Translations under genes and position numbers: made by a program
NCBI GenBank assembly: GCA_958296245.1
Contig: OY282458.1
Location: 1,696,777-1,760,776 of the forward strand
DNA from: an uncultured Dehalococcoidia bacterium
GTDB taxonomy: Bacteria > Chloroflexota > Dehalococcoidia > Lucifugimonadales > G958296245
Direction: 5' to 3'
DNA: 64,000 nt
Shown here: positions 8,484 to 64,000 of the stretch, piece by piece
Position numbering within the stretch: the stretch's first letter is position 1
How the letters are laid out: every line of letters starts with the position of its first letter
The notes under the pieces: generated by a model
The model's database searches: none
Seen by the model: only the letters and a program-made list of their open reading frames with translations
Told to the model about the DNA's origin: nothing

Positions 8484-10574
8484 ATGCTACAGACGGTGAG
8501 AGGCAAGAAGTGGCTGGGGCTGGCTATTGCCCTTGTGGCCTTAGTCGCACTGGCGTGCGGCACTAGGGAGGTCGTCAAGGAAGTAGAGGTCCCCGGCGAG
8601 ACCGTGGTGGTCGAGAAAGAAGTGATCAGGGAAGTCCCCGTAGAGGTGGTGGTGGAGAAAGAGGTCGTCAAGGAAGTGATGGTCCCCGGTGAGACCATGG
8701 TGGTGGAGAAAGAGGTCGTCAAGGAAGTGATGGTCCCCGGTGAGACCGTGGTGGTGGAGAAAGAGGTCGTCAAGGAAGTCCCCGTAGAGGTGGTGGTGGA
8801 GAGAGAGGTCGTCAAGACGGTGGAGGTCCCCGGTCAGACCGTGGTGGTGGAGAAAGAGGTCGTCAGGGAAGTCCCCGTAGAAGTGGTGGTGGAGAAAGAG
8901 GTCGTCAAGGAAGTCCCCGTAGAGGTGGTGGTGGAGAAAGAGGTCGTCAAGACGGTGGAGGTAGTCAAGGAGGTGGAGAAGATCGTCGAGGTGGAGGCCG
9001 CTGGCCCGGAGAAGCACCTCCGGATGCGCTTCAAAGAGGCGATCGCCCACATCAACCCATTCGACTCCCTGTCTAGGCCGCACAGCTGGGCGTGGAATCT
9101 GATGGGCTCCCGCCTCATCTTCCCGGACGACAAAGCTATGCAGTGGTCGCCCGACTTGGCCCAGCGATGGGAAGTCTCCGAAGACGCGACGTCCTACACG
9201 TTCTACCTCCGCAAGGGAGCCAAATTCCACGACGGAGAGGAAGTTACCGCCGACGACGTGGTCTTCACCTTCAGGTCCTACCTGAACCCCGAGGCCAGCC
9301 CTCGAGGGCCCAACTTGCTGAGCCTTATCAAGGGCGCAGAGGCCTTCACCGCGGCCAATGGCCAAGGTGACGTGGGGATAGTCAAGGTCGACGACTACAC
9401 GGTTCGGTTCGACCAGGAGTTCCCCAACGCGCTGTTCCTAGACAAGTGCTGCAACAGCACGCCGATAATCATGCCCGAGCACGTCCTGGGCAACGTGGCC
9501 CCCGCGGAGATAGCGAACTACCCGTGGTCCAGGGAATTCATCGGCTCCGGCCCCTTCATGCTTGACGTCCCCTTCGTTGCTGACAGGGGCTGGTCGATGA
9601 GGAAGAACCCCGACTACTTCTTCGGGGAGCCGCGGCTGGACAAGATCTCGTTCGAGTTCATTGAGACCCGCGACGCGACCTTCGTTGCCATGCAGCGCGG
9701 CGAGATCCACGGCTCGTCCTACCCGACGCTGACCGAGGAGATGTACCAGGCGTTCGTCACCGATCCCCGCTTCAACGTGATCGGCATCAAGGGTTCGATC
9801 ATGCGGAGCTTCATGTTCAACAACAACTACGAGCCCGCACAGGACCTACGAGTACGCCACGCCTTCCTGATGGCGATTGACCGCCAGGCGTTGATTGACG
9901 CCTACTGGCAGGGCAACGGCGACATCATCAACACCCCGTTCCAGAACCCTCTGTACCACATCCCCGAGTACGACTCGCGGTACCCGTACAACCCCGCCAA
10001 GGCCAGGGAGCTGCTGGCGGAGGCCGGCTGGGACGAAAGCACCGTAATCGAGAACAAGAGCTACTACGTCGACCGGGAGGACTTCTTCTCGGCCATCCAG
10101 GCGATGCTGGCTGAAGTTGGCATTCAGATGAAGACCACCATGCAGCAGGGCCCCGCCTGGGTCGAAGACTTCTACAATAAGCACGAATTTGATCTCGTGT
10201 TCGCAGGCTTTGGCGCTCCGTTCGACCCCGACGGCTGGCTCATCGCCCAGATGCACAGCAGCGCGCAGGACGGCGGCCAGTACGCCAACCCCGACTTGGA
10301 CGCGCTGATCGACAAGGGCCGGGCGGCAACGACGCCTGCGGCCCGCGGCGAAGCATACGCCATGATCGCCGAGGACTTCATCGATAGGATGCCCTTCCTG
10401 CCTATCCTCAGGCAGAACGAGTGGTGGTACAAGGCGAACGTCTGGCACCAGCCCATACTGAGCGAGGCGCGCCAGGCCACCAGCTTCTCGACGATCCAGA
10501 TACTCCCGGTGTTCCTCAACGCCGGCTCGTGGCACAAGTACCATCCCGAGCGCTGGGACCTAGACGTTCGGTAG
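8484..10574 (+). CDS. ABC transporter substrate-binding lipoprotein, family 5
   Basis: A 696-residue extracellular solute receptor of the peptide/nickel/oligosaccharide class (SBP_bac_5). A lipoprotein signal ends in LVALACG, with the acylated Cys at residue 25. Residues 28-172 form an unusual linker of Glu/Val/Lys repeats (EVVKEV, VVVEKE, VPGET), predicted to be a highly charged rod or coiled coil. The binding domain runs from about residue 175 to the end and contains FTFYLRKGAKFHDGEEVTADD, the family signature. The ribosome-binding site GGAGGAGG is strong. The two permease genes follow, so this is the receptor of that importer. The ligand is not identifiable from sequence alone. Confidence 0.92.
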   Translation: MLQTVRGKKWLGLAIALVALVALACGTREVVKEVEVPGETVVVEKEVIREVPVEVVVEKEVVKEVMVPGETMVVEKEVVKEVMVPGETVVVEKEVVKEVPVEVVVEREVVKTVEVPGQTVVVEKEVVREVPVEVVVEKEVVKEVPVEVVVEKEVVKTVEVVKEVEKIVEVEAAGPEKHLRMRFKEAIAHINPFDSLSRPHSWAWNLMGSRLIFPDDKAMQWSPDLAQRWEVSEDATSYTFYLRKGAKFHDGEEVTADDVVFTFRSYLNPEASPRGPNLLSLIKGAEAFTAANGQGDVGIVKVDDYTVRFDQEFPNALFLDKCCNSTPIIMPEHVLGNVAPAEIANYPWSREFIGSGPFMLDVPFVADRGWSMRKNPDYFFGEPRLDKISFEFIETRDATFVAMQRGEIHGSSYPTLTEEMYQAFVTDPRFNVIGIKGSIMRSFMFNNNYEPAQDLRVRHAFLMAIDRQALIDAYWQGNGDIINTPFQNPLYHIPEYDSRYPYNPAKARELLAEAGWDESTVIENKSYYVDREDFFSAIQAMLAEVGIQMKTTMQQGPAWVEDFYNKHEFDLVFAGFGAPFDPDGWLIAQMHSSAQDGGQYANPDLDALIDKGRAATTPAARGEAYAMIAEDFIDRMPFLPILRQNEWWYKANVWHQPILSEARQATSFSTIQILPVFLNAGSWHKYHPERWDLDVR
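8565..8999 (+). repeat. In-gene tandem repeat encoding EVVKEV-type linker
   Basis: Degenerate direct repeats of roughly 45-60 bases within the lipoprotein gene. They are built from blocks encoding VVVEKEVVKEV followed by MVPGET or PVEV. The blocks are nearly identical at DNA level, so they are prone to length change by slippage or recombination. They lie in frame throughout, so this is a coding repeat and not a CRISPR. Confidence 0.85.
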
Positions 10575-20142: not shown

Positions 20143-20587
20143 CCCCATACGACGAAATAGTATCCTCTATCGCCCCCCAGATTAGCAGCGCGCACTTAAT
20201 CCGGACGGGGTATTCCCTCACGCCTGCCAGGGTATTCAACTCCCCCATGCGCCCACGCTCTTCGCCGCTCAAGTCGGCGCCGCCCATCATGCCGGCAAAC
20301 AACGCCCTCAGAGTATCGGCCTGCGCCAAGGTCAGCCCCAGAACGGCTTCTGAGGCCATCGAGGCAGTCGCCTGATTGATGGAGCAGCCTTCGGCTTGAA
20401 CCCCAATCTCGGCGATTCGGCCCCGCTCGAGAACAATCTGAACGGCTACCTCGTCCCCGCAGAAGGGATTTACGGCGCAGCCAACAAGGTCGGGGCGGGC
20501 AAGCTCCCGCCGGTTGCGCGGGCTGCGCCGGTGCTCCAAGATCGCGTCCTGGTACAGCTCATCTAGCAGCCGATGCTCCATCTCCAA
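20129..20587 (-). CDS. sufU: SufU-like Fe-S scaffold/sulfurtransferase, first copy
   Basis: A 152-residue SufU/IscU-type protein, which in Gram-positive-like SUF systems accepts sulfur from SufS. The zinc/cluster ligands are in place: Cys43 and Asp45 in NPFCGDE, Cys68 in GCSINQATAS and Cys132 in RIKCALL. The start lies 29 bases inside the end of sufS, so the two are translationally coupled. This is one of two SufU proteins in the operon; the other lies at 22.9 kb. The last residues and the stop are formed by a family B repeat. Confidence 0.9.
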   Translation of the reverse strand: MEMEHRLLDELYQDAILEHRRSPRNRRELARPDLVGCAVNPFCGDEVAVQIVLERGRIAEIGVQAEGCSINQATASMASEAVLGLTLAQADTLRALFAGMMGGADLSGEERGRMGELNTLAGVREYPVRIKCALLIWGAIEDTISSYGEPGV

Positions 20588-21803
20588 AGTATCTCAACGC
20601 TCGCTTCAGTGCGTCAACCAACGTGTCAACTTCCTGCTCGGTATTGTAGACGTAGAGGCTGGCCCTGGCAGTGGCAGGCACGCCAAGGGCGCCCATGAGA
20701 GGCATGGCGCAGTGATGGCCCGTCCTTATGGCTACGCCTTCCTGATCCAAGAAGGTGCCCAGATCGTGCGGATGCACGTCGGACGAATAGAAAGACAGGA
20801 TGCCTCCACGCGAGTCAACGTCCCACGGTCCGAACAGGTCGATCTCCTCCAGCCCTCGTAAGCCGTCCAGAGCATAGGCTGTCAACTGCTTCTCATGCTC
20901 GCGCACGTTCTCCATGCCAAGGCCGGCAAGGTAATCTACGGCGGCGCCCAACCCGATAGCCCCGGCGATGTTGGGCGTACCGGCCTCGAAACGCATCGGC
21001 AAGTCGTTCCAGCTAGCGCCCTCGTAAGACACCTCCAACACCATCTCCCCCCCGTACAGGAACGGTTCCATCTGCTCCAAAACGTCCCGCCGCGCATAGA
21101 GGGCGCCGATACCCGTCGGCCCCATCATCTTGTGACCTGAGATCGCCAGGAAGTCGCAATCAAGCTCCTCTACGTCCACAGGCTGATGAGGAACGCTTTG
21201 AGCCCCGTCCACCAGGACCGCCGCCCCCACGGACCGGGCCATGCCAGCCAATTCCTTGACCGGTACCACCGTCCCGAGCGCATTGGACACGTGCGTTACG
21301 GCTAACAGCTTTGTCTTCGTGTTTATTACCGAGTCCGCGCCGTCCAGATCCAGCCTTCCGTCCTCTGTCAGGTCCAGAAACTTCAGTACGGCCCCCTTCT
21401 TGGCCGCGACCCTCTGCCACGGCACCAAGTTACTGTGATGCTCAAGCCGTGTCAGTACGATCTCGTCGCCCTCGGAGATGTTGCTCTCGCCCCAACTGCG
21501 CGCAACCAGGTTGATCGACTCGGTCGCGTTGCGCGTCCAGATGATGGATTCCGGCGCCCCTGCGTTGATGAAGCGGGCTACCTTCTCGCGGGCCTCTTCG
21601 TACCGATCCGTCGCCTCCATGCTCAGAGAATGCACCCCTCGATGGACGTTGGAGTTGTACGTCTCGTAGTACTCGCTCAGCGCCTGAATTACGGCCCGGG
21701 GCTTATGCGACGTCGCCGCATTGTCCAGGTACGCCAAGGGCTTCCCGTGAACGGTCCTAGACAGGATCGGGAAATCGTTCCTTATTCTCTCGACGTCAAG
21801 CAC
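20559..21803 (-). CDS. sufS: Cysteine desulfurase SufS
   Basis: A 414-residue class V PLP enzyme that takes sulfur from cysteine and passes it to SufU. Lys225 in SGHKMMGPTG binds PLP. Cys365 in RTGHHCAMPLM carries the persulfide and shows the SufS-type (group II) context. GTG at 21803 is chosen. The open frame extends 34 codons upstream, but that part translates a family A repeat. The ribosome-binding sequence GGGGAAG lies in the target-site duplication of that repeat. sufU overlaps its end. Confidence 0.93.
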   Translation of the reverse strand: MLDVERIRNDFPILSRTVHGKPLAYLDNAATSHKPRAVIQALSEYYETYNSNVHRGVHSLSMEATDRYEEAREKVARFINAGAPESIIWTRNATESINLVARSWGESNISEGDEIVLTRLEHHSNLVPWQRVAAKKGAVLKFLDLTEDGRLDLDGADSVINTKTKLLAVTHVSNALGTVVPVKELAGMARSVGAAVLVDGAQSVPHQPVDVEELDCDFLAISGHKMMGPTGIGALYARRDVLEQMEPFLYGGEMVLEVSYEGASWNDLPMRFEAGTPNIAGAIGLGAAVDYLAGLGMENVREHEKQLTAYALDGLRGLEEIDLFGPWDVDSRGGILSFYSSDVHPHDLGTFLDQEGVAIRTGHHCAMPLMGALGVPATARASLYVYNTEQEVDTLVDALKRALRYFGDGASAAR

Positions 21804-22000
21804 TTCACTTCCCCGTAACTGTTCAGAGTTCGTGAGGTCTTTTTCGACTGGCGCAGCCCCGATAAAGCAGATGTCTTTGATCCCCGCCCGCCCGCACCTT
21901 GGCAACTGGGGGCACGGCCCCCAGACCCCCTGCCGGAGGGGAGGACCTCTCCGGCCTTCCCCCTGCGAGTCTCACAGAGTCTGGACAGCTTCACTTCCCC
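21804..22000 (-). mobile_element. Family A MITE-like repeat, copy A2, with 11-bp target-site duplication
   Basis: The element proper is 21815-21989. It begins with GTAACTGTTCAGAGTTCGTG and ends with CTCACAGAGTCTGGACAGC, which are imperfect inverted repeats of each other. Both sides carry TTCACTTCCCC (21804-21814 and 21990-22000), the expected footprint of an insertion. The element fills the gap between the Rieske gene and sufS and ends 12 bases before the sufS start. No coding sequence of its own. Confidence 0.85.
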
Positions 22001-22091: not shown

Positions 22092-22397
22092 TCAAACCTC
22101 CACCTGGATCTCTTCGCCTTCTAACCTGACCGGAAAGGTATCGACCGGCAGGAAGGCGGGAGCCTCCGTTGCCTCGCCTGTTCTGACGTCGAACCTGGCG
22201 CCGTGAAGCGGGCACTCGATCTCGAAGCCGTCGAGGTCTCCCTCGTCCAATGATCCCTCATCGTGCGTGCAGATGTTATCGATGGCGCATATGCGGCCGT
22301 CGGCGTTGCAGATGGCTATATCCCTGTCCCCCACCGTGACCACCTTCGCCGTGCCGGCCGGTACGTCCGGAAGCCTCGCTACTGTGACGTATCCCAT
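22092..22397 (-). CDS. Rieske-type [2Fe-2S] ferredoxin-like protein
   Basis: A 101-residue single-domain Rieske protein. The ligands are Cys43 and His45 in CTHDEG and Cys62 and His65 in CPLHGARFD. It resembles the NirD/biphenyl-dioxygenase ferredoxin type, lacks a membrane anchor and is probably a cytoplasmic electron carrier. It sits inside the SUF operon after the Rrf2 regulator. It may give electrons to Fe-S assembly or be a client of it (inference). Confidence 0.9.
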   Translation of the reverse strand: MGYVTVARLPDVPAGTAKVVTVGDRDIAICNADGRICAIDNICTHDEGSLDEGDLDGFEIECPLHGARFDVRTGEATEAPAFLPVDTFPVRLEGEEIQVEV

Positions 22398-25513: not shown

Positions 25514-26002
25514 TCAGTTCTTGATCTGGAAGCAGACAGGCGGCGTGTCTGACCTGAGGTACAGCGGGTGCCTGGGCTGCCCCTTCCCGGTCAGCCCGAG
25601 GTGATACGTCTTGCCCAACCAACCCTCGCTCTCGAGCATTCCCATAACACGTTCTCCCCTGCCGAGATGCAACCCGTGATTCCCCCACGCGCAGACCACC
25701 CTATCCGCATCCCGCCCGCGCCTCACGACGTGGCCGTCATTCATCGGCCCTACCGGGTCCGAGGACTGCTTTAGGGATCCGGGGTCCGGAGAGCGCAGGG
25801 CGAACAGGTTGCACACCCACAGGACACCATATCCCCAGCCGCCGGCGAAGCCCTTGCACCTGGTGACCGTCGGGTCGGACATGGTCTCGTCTGCCGTGCT
25901 CGGGTTCAGCATCAGGAATAAGCAAGTCCCGCCCCTGTCGGACATATTCGCCTCTAGCCAGTAGCGGTAGCGGCGGTCACGTGAAAAAGACACGTTGTGC
26001 AT
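25514..26002 (-). CDS. DUF1643-family protein inside the SUF operon
   Basis: A 162-residue protein with the DUF1643 hallmarks LMLNPSTADETMSDPTVTRC and GYGVLWVCNLFALR, followed by PVGPMND. The biochemical function of the family is not established. It lies between sufB and sufC, where no extra gene is normally found, and reads in the same direction with 17 bases to sufC, so it is expressed with the operon. Its start is just after the stop of a possible 59-residue ORF. Confidence 0.88.
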   Translation of the reverse strand: MHNVSFSRDRRYRYWLEANMSDRGGTCLFLMLNPSTADETMSDPTVTRCKGFAGGWGYGVLWVCNLFALRSPDPGSLKQSSDPVGPMNDGHVVRRGRDADRVVCAWGNHGLHLGRGERVMGMLESEGWLGKTYHLGLTGKGQPRHPLYLRSDTPPVCFQIKN

Positions 26003-27773: not shown

Positions 27774-27899
27774 GTAACTGTTCAGACCCTGTGAGACCTG
27801 AAGGGGAAAGTCCGGAGAGGTCCTCCCCTCTGGCAGGGGTCCGGTATGCAGGCGAGACGCCTGCGCTCCCAGTTACCAAGGGGCGGGCGGGTGGGGATC
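27774..27899 (+). mobile_element. Family A MITE-like repeat, copy A3 (truncated)
   Basis: Starts with GTAACTGTTCAGACCCTGTG and continues with the left-end block AAGGGGAAAGTCCGGAGAGG, the CTCTGGCAGGGG hairpin arm and AGTTACCAAGGGGCGGGCGG. It also carries GCAGGCGAGACGCCTGC, a palindromic insert absent from other copies. The far end is missing. The retained end lies 17 bp upstream of the sufB -35 box. Confidence 0.7.
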
Positions 27900-27945
27900 C
27901 CCGCCCATCCTCTTCATCCACGTCCGACTGCCCCGACGGTGGGAT

Positions 27946-41747: not shown

Positions 41748-43118
41748 ATGCGTAGTATTCCAGTAAGGCCCAATCAGATGATCCCATTGCACGGCCTCAT
41801 TGAAATCCGCGACCTGAAGCTATGGATGCTTTCGTTCGTTCTGGGCGCGGTTCTGCTCGCCGCGTGCGGCGGCTCCACCCCGGCAGAGCCCGCCATGACG
41901 CCCACGACGGCGCCCACGCCCGGCAGTGTAGCGCCGGCAGCCGAGCCTACCATGACGCCCACGCCCGGCAGTGTAGCGCCGGCAGCCGAGCCTACCATGA
42001 CGCCCACGCCCGGCAGTGTAGAACCGGCAGCCGAACCTACCGCGGCGCCCACGCCCGGCAGTGTAGAACCGGCAGCCGAGCCTACCGCGGCGCCCACGCC
42101 CGGCAGTGAAGAACCGGCGCCCACGCCCGGCGCAGGCAACGAGGCTGCGCTGTTCAACATACCGGCGCGGGCGGAAGGGCTCGAGGGCCTGACGGACTCC
42201 GTTGTCGAGACCAACATCGCGCAGGTCTCCGTAACGCTACCGGACGGCCGCGTGTTCGTGGCCGGGGGCGTAGGAGAAGACCTCAGCCCGTCCGGGGCCT
42301 CGTACGTGCTGACGCCGGCAACGGGTAAGTGGAAGGCCCTGCCGCCTATGATCACCCCCCGCGTGCTCCATACGATAACCGTCCTCGCCGACGGCGAGGT
42401 CCTGGCCTCGGGAGGAGTCAGCGTGGATGGGCCGACGAACACCGCCGAGGTATTCGTCCCCGACTTGGGCTCTTGGAGACGAGCCGGGACCATGCCCCAC
42501 GCCGTCGGCAGCCACTCCGCAACGCTCCTCGTCGACGGCAGGGTGCTGGTCAGCGGCGGCCAGTCGGACAGAAACACACGGGTCGCCTATCTTCAGATAT
42601 ACGACCCGCAGAGCGGCTCGTGGTCCGAGGCTGCGGAGATGATGGAAGCCCGCACCGCGCACACCGCCACCCTCCTACCGGATGGCCGCGTGCTCATCGC
42701 GGGGGGCGCACCCACGCCCGATACCGTCACCGAGAGCGCCGAACTGTTCGACGCGGCGGCGAACACGACCGCTCCGGGGCCTGGCATGAACAGCCCCCGC
42801 GCGTACCATACGGCGACCGTGTTGAAGGATGGGACGATGCTGGTCTCGGGCGGATACGGCGAGTCCGACTTTGCCAAGGAGGCCGAGATATACGACCCCT
42901 CAACCGGCGAGTGGAGCAGGACCGGGGAGATGTACTTCGGCGCCGTGCTCCTCCGATCTGAGCTCCTGCCGGACGGGAGGGTGATCACCTACGGCGGCAG
43001 CCGCGAAGGCCTCGAATTGACGATCCCGCAGGTCTACGATCCGTCCACGCGGAGCTGGGGCGTGGCGGACCTCAGATTGGAGCGCGCCCCCAGGGCGGGC
43101 GACGTGGACCTGGAGTAG
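41748..43118 (+). CDS. Kelch-repeat lipoprotein with Pro/Thr/Ala linker
   Basis: A 456-residue lipoprotein. The signal ends in VLLAACGG, with the acylated Cys at residue 40 if the ATG at 41748 is used (ATG at 41778 or 41826 would give a shorter signal). Residues about 48-130 are tandem repeats of the type PTPGSVEPAAEPT. The rest has at least five kelch-like blades with the pattern HTATLLPDGRVLIAGG and YDPxxGxW, forming a propeller outside the cell. Probably involved in binding or surface interactions; ligand unknown. Confidence 0.85.
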   Translation: MRSIPVRPNQMIPLHGLIEIRDLKLWMLSFVLGAVLLAACGGSTPAEPAMTPTTAPTPGSVAPAAEPTMTPTPGSVAPAAEPTMTPTPGSVEPAAEPTAAPTPGSVEPAAEPTAAPTPGSEEPAPTPGAGNEAALFNIPARAEGLEGLTDSVVETNIAQVSVTLPDGRVFVAGGVGEDLSPSGASYVLTPATGKWKALPPMITPRVLHTITVLADGEVLASGGVSVDGPTNTAEVFVPDLGSWRRAGTMPHAVGSHSATLLVDGRVLVSGGQSDRNTRVAYLQIYDPQSGSWSEAAEMMEARTAHTATLLPDGRVLIAGGAPTPDTVTESAELFDAAANTTAPGPGMNSPRAYHTATVLKDGTMLVSGGYGESDFAKEAEIYDPSTGEWSRTGEMYFGAVLLRSELLPDGRVITYGGSREGLELTIPQVYDPSTRSWGVADLRLERAPRAGDVDLE

Positions 43119-61403: not shown

Positions 61404-64000
61404 ATGAGTAAAAGATACGCGGGCCTACGGGTCTGGCAAGTCCTCGCCGCTGCTGCCTTTCTCGTGATCGGTTTCGGCGGAAGCTACGTCGCGTACAGGG
61501 CTCTCACCGGCTCGGAGGATCAACCTTCAGACAAGAACCAGCAACTCATCCCAGTGACTCGCGGCAACTTGGTGAACGACGTCTCCATCAATGGCAGTGT
61601 CAAGTACCCCAATCGGAAGAAGTTGTACTTCGGGACTAAGGGCACGGTCGCCGAGCTGCTGGTAGAGGAAGGCGAGGCCGTCGATGAGGGCCAGAGGTTG
61701 GCCCTCATCGACTCCAAATCGGTTGCCGCCCTGAAAGCGGACGTCGCCAAGGCCGAGGTCGAGTTGCGCGACGCCAATAAGGCGCTCAAGACCGCCCTCG
61801 ACCCCTTCACCCGCCTCGACGTTGCGCAGGCGGAATCCAAAGTGGCCGGCGCCAAAGTGGCGCTGGAGGAGGCTTCCAAGAAGCTGACGGCGCTCACGCA
61901 ACCCTCGCGGCACGCAATCGCCGAGGCCGAGGAGGCGGTCGCCAACGCGCGTACGTCCCTAACCAGCGCCCAAGAGGCTCTCGCCAAGCTCACGAGCCCC
62001 GGAGGCGAGGCCGTGGCTAAGGCTGAAGCCCGCCCGGACAAAGCCAGGGTGGCGCTGAACAACGCACAGGAGGCGTTGACCAAGCTGGTCTCGCCCGACG
62101 CGGCCGATCTAGAAAAGGCCGAGGCGAACGTCGTCAAAGCCAGGGTGGCGCTGAACAATGCGCGGGAGGCGTTGACCAAGCTGACCGCGCCGGACGCGGC
62201 CGATCTAAAAAAGGCCGAGGCGGACGCCGTCAAAGCCAAGGTGGCGCTGAACAACGCACGGGAGGCGTTGGCCAAGCTGGTCTCGCCCGTCGAGCATGAC
62301 GTGAAGCAGGCCGAAGCTAAGGTGACCGGCTCCGGGATTGCGCTCGCGGAGGCAAAGAAGAAGCTGTCCCGCCTGGTAGATCCCGGCGCCCGCCAGATCG
62401 CCGAAGCCGAGGCCGCCGTCGCGGACGCGGAAAAGGCATTGGCAGACGCCATAGAGGCGCTAGGCGCGTTGACGCCCAGCGCGGAGGCGTTGGCCAAGGC
62501 GAGGTCCTCCGTCACGGAGGCGAAGGAAGCACGCGCCGACGCCCTGGAAGACCTCCGAAAGCTCGATAGCGGCCCTTCCGTGAAGGATGTATCGAAGCTG
62601 CAATTGGCGGTCGACCAGGCGGAGGCATCCTTAACGAGTGCGCGGCTTGACGTGGAGTTGGTCTCAGAGGAGTGGGAAGACAAGATCAAGCCTGCGTCCA
62701 AGACCGTGAACACCGCCGCGCGCGAGTACGTGAGCGTCTTTCGGAGCTGGTTGGGCATCGAAATCAGCGGCGACCAGGCCAGGATGGCTCCCGCGGAGGT
62801 GCTCGATTTCCTGGATCTGGACTTGGACTCGATTTTTGCCGTCCGACCCGTGGCGTCCAACGCGAACTTGCCTGCGGACGACCCGGACACCAAGTGGGAC
62901 GAACATCTCGTCCATATCTGGCTCAACCTCTACCCGGGTATGGTGATCACAACCTGTTCCCCCGACGCGGATCTCCTTGGCGGGACCCGCTGCATAAGCA
63001 GGGAGATGGACAAGGCGTGGGATGCGCTTTCCGACGCCATAGACGCCCTGAATACTGTGGAGGCCAACGCCGACAAGGCGACGCTCGGGGCCAGAGCCGC
63101 CGTAGACAAGGCGATGAGCGACCTGGGCGACGCTCAAGACGCTCTGGCGGAGCTCATGAAGCCTCCGACCAGCCTTAAGCTCGAGTCCGCGCGGGTCCGA
63201 GTAGATGCGGCTCTGGCGAAGATGGAATCGGCGCAGGACGAACTCGCCCGGCTCGAGGCGGCGCCGATCAAGGTGGACGTGGACCTCAGAGAAACGAAGG
63301 TCGCCCTAGCCAGAACAGGCCTCCAACAGGCAAAGGACAAGCTGGACAAGCTGACGGAGCCTGACCCGCTGGACGTAGAGGCCGCGCAGAATGAGGTTAC
63401 GTTGGCCGAGGCGAAACTGGCCGAGGATGAAAAGAGCTTGGCGGAGTTGACCCCGGACCCGTTGGACGTAGAGGCCGCGCAGAATGAGGTTGCGTTGGCC
63501 GAGGCTAAGTTGGCCGAGGATGAAAAGAGTTTGGCTAAACTGATCACCCCGGACCCGTTGGACGTAGAGGCCGCGCACAGTGAGGTTACGTTGGCCGAGG
63601 CGAAGTTGGCCGAGGATGAAAAGAGTTTGGCTAAACTGATCACCCCGGACCCGTTGGACGTAGAGGCCGCGCACAGTGAGGTTGCGTTGGCTGAAGCGGA
63701 ACTGGATGAAGCAATATCCCAGTTGGCGAAGCTCACCCAGCCCAACGAACAAGAGATCGAACTCAAGCAAAAAGAGGTTGCGCTGGCAGAGGCAGAGTTG
63801 GAGAAGGCAGAGTCCCAATTGGCGAAGCTGATGGCGCCGGATCCCCGGGACGTTGAGAAGCAGGAGAAGGAGGTCGAAGTAGCCCAAGCGCTCCTGGGAG
63901 ACGCGGTGCAGAAGCTGGAGGACGTGACGAAGGGCGCTGACCCGCTCGACGTCACCCTGAAACGTCTCACGGCCACGGCGGCCACCGCATCCCTGGAGGC
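61404..64000 (+). CDS. HlyD-type membrane fusion (adaptor) protein with very long coiled coil, partial
   Basis: An open frame of 865 codons from ATG 61404 that runs off the window. Residues about 10-33 form one membrane anchor (VWQVLAAAAFLVIGFGGSYVAY). A biotinyl-lipoyl-like half follows: KGTVAELLVEEGEAVDEGQRLALID (about 75-99). Then come hundreds of residues of Ala/Glu/Lys/Leu heptads (AEAKVAL, LAEAKLAEDEKSL), interrupted near residues 440-530 by a non-helical insert that includes two Cys. The second half-lipoyl and beta-barrel domains must lie beyond the window. Probably the adaptor of an ABC or RND exporter. The large Ser/Ala-rich antisense frames are shadows. Confidence 0.85.
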   Translation, partial: MSKRYAGLRVWQVLAAAAFLVIGFGGSYVAYRALTGSEDQPSDKNQQLIPVTRGNLVNDVSINGSVKYPNRKKLYFGTKGTVAELLVEEGEAVDEGQRLALIDSKSVAALKADVAKAEVELRDANKALKTALDPFTRLDVAQAESKVAGAKVALEEASKKLTALTQPSRHAIAEAEEAVANARTSLTSAQEALAKLTSPGGEAVAKAEARPDKARVALNNAQEALTKLVSPDAADLEKAEANVVKARVALNNAREALTKLTAPDAADLKKAEADAVKAKVALNNAREALAKLVSPVEHDVKQAEAKVTGSGIALAEAKKKLSRLVDPGARQIAEAEAAVADAEKALADAIEALGALTPSAEALAKARSSVTEAKEARADALEDLRKLDSGPSVKDVSKLQLAVDQAEASLTSARLDVELVSEEWEDKIKPASKTVNTAAREYVSVFRSWLGIEISGDQARMAPAEVLDFLDLDLDSIFAVRPVASNANLPADDPDTKWDEHLVHIWLNLYPGMVITTCSPDADLLGGTRCISREMDKAWDALSDAIDALNTVEANADKATLGARAAVDKAMSDLGDAQDALAELMKPPTSLKLESARVRVDAALAKMESAQDELARLEAAPIKVDVDLRETKVALARTGLQQAKDKLDKLTEPDPLDVEAAQNEVTLAEAKLAEDEKSLAELTPDPLDVEAAQNEVALAEAKLAEDEKSLAKLITPDPLDVEAAHSEVTLAEAKLAEDEKSLAKLITPDPLDVEAAHSEVALAEAELDEAISQLAKLTQPNEQEIELKQKEVALAEAELEKAESQLAKLMAPDPRDVEKQEKEVEVAQALLGDAVQKLEDVTKGADPLDVTLKRLTATAATASLE
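63360..63740 (+). repeat. In-gene tandem repeat of 93-96 bp in the coiled coil
   Basis: Four direct copies begin at about 63360, 63453, 63549 and 63645, each starting with CC(T/G)GACCCG(C/T)TGGACGTAGA. The unit encodes 31-32 residues of the form PDPLDVEAAxxEVxLAEAKL and onward to KSLAKLIT. The second, third and fourth copies are nearly identical, which points to recent expansion. Confidence 0.85.

What the first reader, a model, noticed from the sequence alone, without database searches (positions are those of the whole stretch)
21804..22000. Exact 11-bp target-site duplication places an insertion at the sufS ribosome-binding site
TTCACTTCCCC is present on both sides of copy A2. On the minus strand this is the GGGGAAGTGAA directly before the sufS GTG. 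The duplication restored the ribosome-binding sequence after insertion, so translation could survive although the element splits the SUF operon.
Basis: seen in the sequence. Interest (0 to 1): 0.68.

Follow-up and report, generated by a model that had tools for sequence, protein, structure and literature searches.

The report
Miniature transposon copy before sufS
A 178-bp non-coding "passenger" transposon, one of dozens in this bacterium, has landed just before an iron-sulphur cluster gene; it copied 8 bases of the target (not 11) and left that gene's start signal unchanged, which is a tidy but ordinary case of a known kind of insertion.

Summary
The 11-mer TTCACTTCCCC lies on both sides of the repeat, and GGGGAAGTGAA directly precedes the sufS GTG. 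The element is 178 bp (21815-21992), one of at least 40 copies here and present in another family of the order. The target duplication is 8 bp, not 11: only length 8 stands out, in two genomes (9/31 and 7/15 copies with at most one mismatch, against 0.30 and 0.45 by chance). The focal duplication is ACTTCCCC; the extra TTC is the element's own end, matched by host bases. GTAA ends plus 8-bp duplications are the IS66/ISBst12 signature; IS66 elements in relatives have the same ends and exact 8-bp duplications, one sharing 22/22 bp with the focal left end. So it is an IS66-type MITE. Removing 186 bp leaves a 102-nt Rieske-sufS gap; ten element-free relatives have 17-114 nt. The sufS start signal is the same with or without the element; no terminator or promoter was found in it. 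The strict empty-site test could not be run: no close relative is held.

The parts
21815..21992 (+). the element: 178-bp non-autonomous IS66-type MITE, ends GTAACTGTTCAGA...TCTGGACAGCTTC
   Evidence: genome-wide copies; consensus of 24 full-length copies is also 178 bp, focal copy 8.4% diverged with no gaps
21815..21839 (+). left terminal inverted repeat GTAACTGTTCAGAGTTCGTGAGGTC; first 22 bp identical to the left end of an IS66 element in G062
21967..21992 (-). right terminal inverted repeat (reverse complement GAAGCTGTCCAGACTCTGTGAGACTC)
21807..21814 (.). target-site duplication copy on the sufS side, ACTTCCCC (GGGGAAGT of the sufS ribosome-binding region)
21993..22000 (.). target-site duplication copy on the Rieske side, ACTTCCCC
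21804..21806 (.). host TTC that happens to equal the element's last three bases (21990-21992), making the 11-mer
   Evidence: identical runs of 8 to 13 bp among copies with exact 8-bp duplications
20559..21803 (-). sufS, GTG start at 21803
   Evidence: PF00266; the GTG lines up with the ATG of 6 of 10 relatives
22092..22397 (-). Rieske-type ferredoxin gene directly upstream of sufS
   Evidence: PF00355; same neighbour order in ten relatives
27774..27904 (-). second, truncated copy of the family in the opposite sense, 17 bp upstream of the sufB reading frame; far edge approximate

Best explanation
The feature is a 178-bp non-coding miniature inverted-repeat transposable element that was moved in the past by an IS66-family transposase of the ISBst12 type acting in trans. 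The transposase cut the target with an 8-nt stagger inside the sufS ribosome-binding region, joined the GTAA... ends to the overhangs, and repair duplicated ACTTCCCC. Because the cut lay 3 nt outside the sufS GTG, the sufS-side flank kept the complete GGGGAAGTGAA-GTG, so translation initiation of sufS needs no repair or new start. The element is an old, probably immobile copy and most likely has a neutral or weak effect on the suf transcript. Shown: ends, 8-bp duplication, copy number, same ends on IS66 elements in the order, absence in ten relatives, unchanged start signal. Inferred: mobilisation by IS66 in trans, continued co-transcription, near-neutral effect.
For: At least 40 loci in the own genome, 267 TIR matches there and 127 in G022 against 1 reversed-pattern control hit each. 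Only TSD length 8 exceeds the shuffled control, in two genomes. IS66 transposase loci in the same order carry GTAACTGTTCAG[G/A] at their ends with exact 8-bp duplications ACAAACGC and GTTGCAGG; a G062 IS66 left end equals the focal left end over 22/22 bp. Published ISDge4 (IS66, ISBst12 group) has end GTAACTGCTCAGCA and an 8-bp repeat (PMC12898284); Paracoccus IS66 members make 8-bp repeats (PMC3281130). The Rieske-sufS gap is 288 nt with the element and 102 nt without, against 17-114 nt in ten relatives. SD pairing is -10.1 kcal/mol in both states; no promoter or terminator match within the element; no covarying RNA structure.
Against: No IS66 transposase is found in the own genome, so the mobiliser is not shown. 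The copies most similar to each other still differ by about 8%, so no recent transposition is seen. The focal identical run (13 bp) is the longest of the set, although runs of 11-12 also occur. Predicted openness of the start signal is the same or slightly lower with the element (0.30-0.37 against 0.32-0.48), so a mild effect on translation is possible.
Confidence: 0.92

Rival explanations
1. The duplication really is 11 (or 12-13) bp, so the element belongs to a family with long duplications such as IS4/IS231.
For: The exact repeat at this locus is 11-13 bp; in L030 the match also extends through CTTC.
Against: With ends fixed by the family consensus, lengths 9-14 show at most one copy with one mismatch or fewer in each genome, while length 8 shows 9/31 and 7/15. 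The extra bases are the element's own TTC end, present in most copies. Autonomous elements with the same ends give exactly 8.
Confidence: 0.04
2. The element is a functional regulatory RNA or attenuator of the suf operon, kept by selection, and not simply a mobile-element remnant.
For: It is GC-rich with stable hairpins and sits between operon genes; a second copy lies just upstream of sufB.
Against: Folding z-scores are -0.48 and -1.81, the covariation term is -0.05 with 2 of 34 pairs covarying, there is no Rfam match, copies are spread all over the genome, and none of ten relatives has it at this place.
Confidence: 0.04
3. The insertion cut sufS off from the upstream transcript or start, and sufS is now expressed from a promoter supplied by the element or translated from an in-frame TTG inside it (21905).
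For: The sufS frame is open into the element up to a TTG at 21905.
Against: The GTG at 21803 aligns with the ATG of relatives and its SD pairing is stronger than that of the TTG (-10.1 against -8.4); no sigma-70-like match lies within the element.
Confidence: 0.08

Closest known systems
IS66 family, ISBst12 group (ISDge4 of Deinococcus geothermalis, PMC12898284)
   Same: Ends GTAACTG.TCAG.A and an 8-bp direct repeat at the target.
   Different: ISDge4 encodes a 449-aa transposase; the window element is 178 bp and non-coding.
Chunjie MITE of Geobacter uraniireducens (Chen et al. 2008, as described in review PMC10969869; original paper not held)
   Same: A 178-235-bp non-coding element in tens of copies, inserted in an operon, reported in its title as not disturbing the operon structure.
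   Different: Different host; from the review text I cannot compare ends or duplication length, and I did not compare sequences.
Correia elements and other bacterial MITEs (PMC10969869)
   Same: Short, TIR-bearing, multi-copy, mostly between genes (general knowledge and the review).
   Different: Some Correia copies have shown regulatory effects; none is shown here.

Membership tests
MITE (miniature inverted-repeat transposable element) | short, without coding capacity for a transposase | tested here: met
   178 bp, too short for a transposase gene
MITE (miniature inverted-repeat transposable element) | terminal inverted repeats and target-site duplications | tested here: met
   about 22-bp TIRs; 8-bp duplications well above shuffles
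MITE (miniature inverted-repeat transposable element) | many dispersed copies | tested here: met
IS66 family derivative (ISBst12-like) | ends begin with GTAA | tested here: met
   left ends mostly GTAA; right ends GTAA or GAAA
IS66 family derivative (ISBst12-like) | 8-bp target duplication | tested here: met
IS66 family derivative (ISBst12-like) | ends shared with an element that encodes a DDE_Tnp_IS66 transposase | tested here: met
   G141 elements of 1.47-1.48 kb, and a G062 left end identical over 22 bp
IS66 family derivative (ISBst12-like) | IS66 transposase in the same genome | tested here: not met
   none found; so it is filed as a non-autonomous derivative, not as an IS66 insertion sequence
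IS66 family derivative (ISBst12-like) | mobilisation by IS66 transposase in trans | not testable with these tools
   needs a transposition assay
IS4/IS231 family (10-12-bp duplications, from general knowledge) | duplications of 10-12 bp | tested here: not met
structured RNA family (Rfam) | match to a known RNA family or covarying pairs | tested here: not met

The most novel reading that the evidence does not exclude
An undescribed IS66-derived MITE family that grew to a hundred or more copies in a SAR202-like Chloroflexota genome which no longer holds an IS66 transposase, with several survivors whose 8-bp duplication covers the Shine-Dalgarno region of the next gene (focal copy; L052 GGGGAGGC; L057 TGCCGGGG), so that start signals are often duplicated rather than destroyed.
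Probability: 0.3. Interest if true: 0.35.

Novelty: new member of a known kind. Interest (0 to 1): 0.22.

Why it matters
It corrects an 11-bp reading to an 8-bp one, which changes the family assignment and shows that a single copy cannot fix a duplication length when host and element ends happen to match. It documents an abundant, apparently old IS66-type MITE in Chloroflexota near SAR202 and gives one more case of an operon taking up a small transposon without loss of the downstream start signal.

Tried and rejected
Strict empty-site search: no other genome of the same family is held and the nearest SufS proteins are only about 64-73% identical, so the intergenic DNA cannot be aligned. IS66 transposase in the own genome: none; a weak 30-residue hit in G022 has no TIR near it. 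RNA function: no Rfam match, no covariation. Right end of the G062 IS66 element: not found, the element looks broken. Papers on SAR202 MITEs: none found; the Chunjie paper is not held.

Full report
Observation. TTCACTTCCCC is present at 21804-21814 and 21990-22000 and nowhere else in the window. Read on the minus strand it is GGGGAAGTGAA, immediately followed by the GTG (21803) of sufS. The identical stretch is 13 bp long (CTTCACTTCCCCG), so the chosen 11 bp is not a natural unit.

What lies between. The 178 bp between the flanks is one member of a dispersed repeat family: 54 BLAST matches at 40 or so loci in the own genome, further copies in G022, a genome of another family of the same order, and 267 and 127 matches to the terminal repeat in the two genomes. 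The window alone has six copies or parts. The consensus of 24 full-length copies is 178 bp, starts GTAACTGTTCAGACTTCGTGAGGTC and ends GGGTCTCACAGAGTCTGAACAGTTTC. Copies stand about 5-13% from the consensus and the closest pair differs by 8%, which points to an old burst (inference).

Length of the duplication. With the ends fixed by the consensus I compared left and right flanks for all copies with both ends. In the own genome 9 of 31, and in G022 7 of 15, match over 8 bp with at most one mismatch, against 0.30 and 0.45 in shuffled pairings; no length from 9 to 14 rises above one copy (first set). Among 21 copies with a good 8-bp match, those with an exact match have identical runs of 8 to 13 bp because neighbouring bases sometimes agree with the element's own end. 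The focal duplication is therefore ACTTCCCC (21807-21814 and 21993-22000); the extra TTC is the element's terminal TTC, matched by the host bases 21804-21806.

Which kind of element. GTAA ends and 8-bp duplications suggested IS66. Searching the order for PF03050 gave nine genomes. In G141 complete elements of 1,472-1,480 bp have ends GTAACTGTTCAGG and, in two of them, exact 8-bp duplications (ACAAACGC, GTTGCAGG), and the transposase hits PF03050 at 2.5e-40. In G062 an IS66 gene is preceded by an end that equals the focal left end over 22 of 22 bp. The published ISDge4 of the ISBst12 group has the end GTAACTGCTCAGCA and an 8-bp repeat (PMC12898284), and two Paracoccus IS66 elements make 8-bp repeats (PMC3281130). 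The own genome has no IS66 transposase. The element is therefore best called a non-autonomous IS66-type MITE; mobilisation in trans is inferred.

Effect on the suf genes. The order on the minus strand is sufB, an unrelated ORF, sufC, sufD, a sufU-like gene, an Rrf2 regulator, Rieske, [element], sufS, sufU (gene names by BLAST with relatives and Pfam, partly from general knowledge). Ten relatives keep Rieske directly upstream of sufS, without the element, with gaps of 17-114 nt; the window has 288 nt, or 102 nt after removing element plus one duplication. The GTG aligns with the ATG of six relatives. Predicted pairing with the anti-SD is -10.1 kcal/mol with and without the element, and predicted openness of the start region is similar or slightly lower with it. 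No promoter- or terminator-like match falls in the element. So sufS translation should continue, but the duplication did not repair anything: the sufS-side flank was never altered.

How special is the position. Eleven of 66 element sides have a start codon within 45 nt, an open frame of at least 130 codons and an SD-like pairing of -7 kcal/mol or better, against 7.1% of random window points (counted from its list). This is expected if surviving insertions lie mostly between genes. In L052 (GGGGAGGC) and L057 (TGCCGGGG) the duplication also overlaps the likely Shine-Dalgarno region, so the focal case is not unique.

Limits. Copy numbers are lower bounds. The organism is placed near SAR202 Chloroflexota only by its nearest SufS relatives.

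Noticed in passing
window 27774-27904: A second, truncated copy of the same family lies 17 bp upstream of the sufB reading frame, so the suf gene run carries two insertions.
   Followed up: partly
L048 498-1143; L198 257-794; L039 500-1202: Head-to-tail tandem arrays of the element (periods 162, 148 and about 134 bp, 3.6-5 units); in the first two, neighbouring units share one fused terminal repeat, possibly from unequal recombination or joined ends.
   Followed up: partly
L041, L047, L049, L052, L058, L059: Longer members (235-358 bp) with extra internal sequence between the two conserved halves.
   Followed up: no
L042 (G000:C1:136730-137880): A copy that lacks the right terminal repeat but still has CTCCTGTG on both sides, suggesting loss of the end after insertion.
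   Followed up: no
window 25514-26002: An unrelated reading frame (162 aa) lies between sufB and sufC, which are close neighbours in relatives such as L064-L066.
   Followed up: no
window 8568-8990, 41855-42124, 62019-62344, 63357-63737: Several tandem repeats with periods of 45, 51/42 and about 96 bp, probably coding.
   Followed up: no
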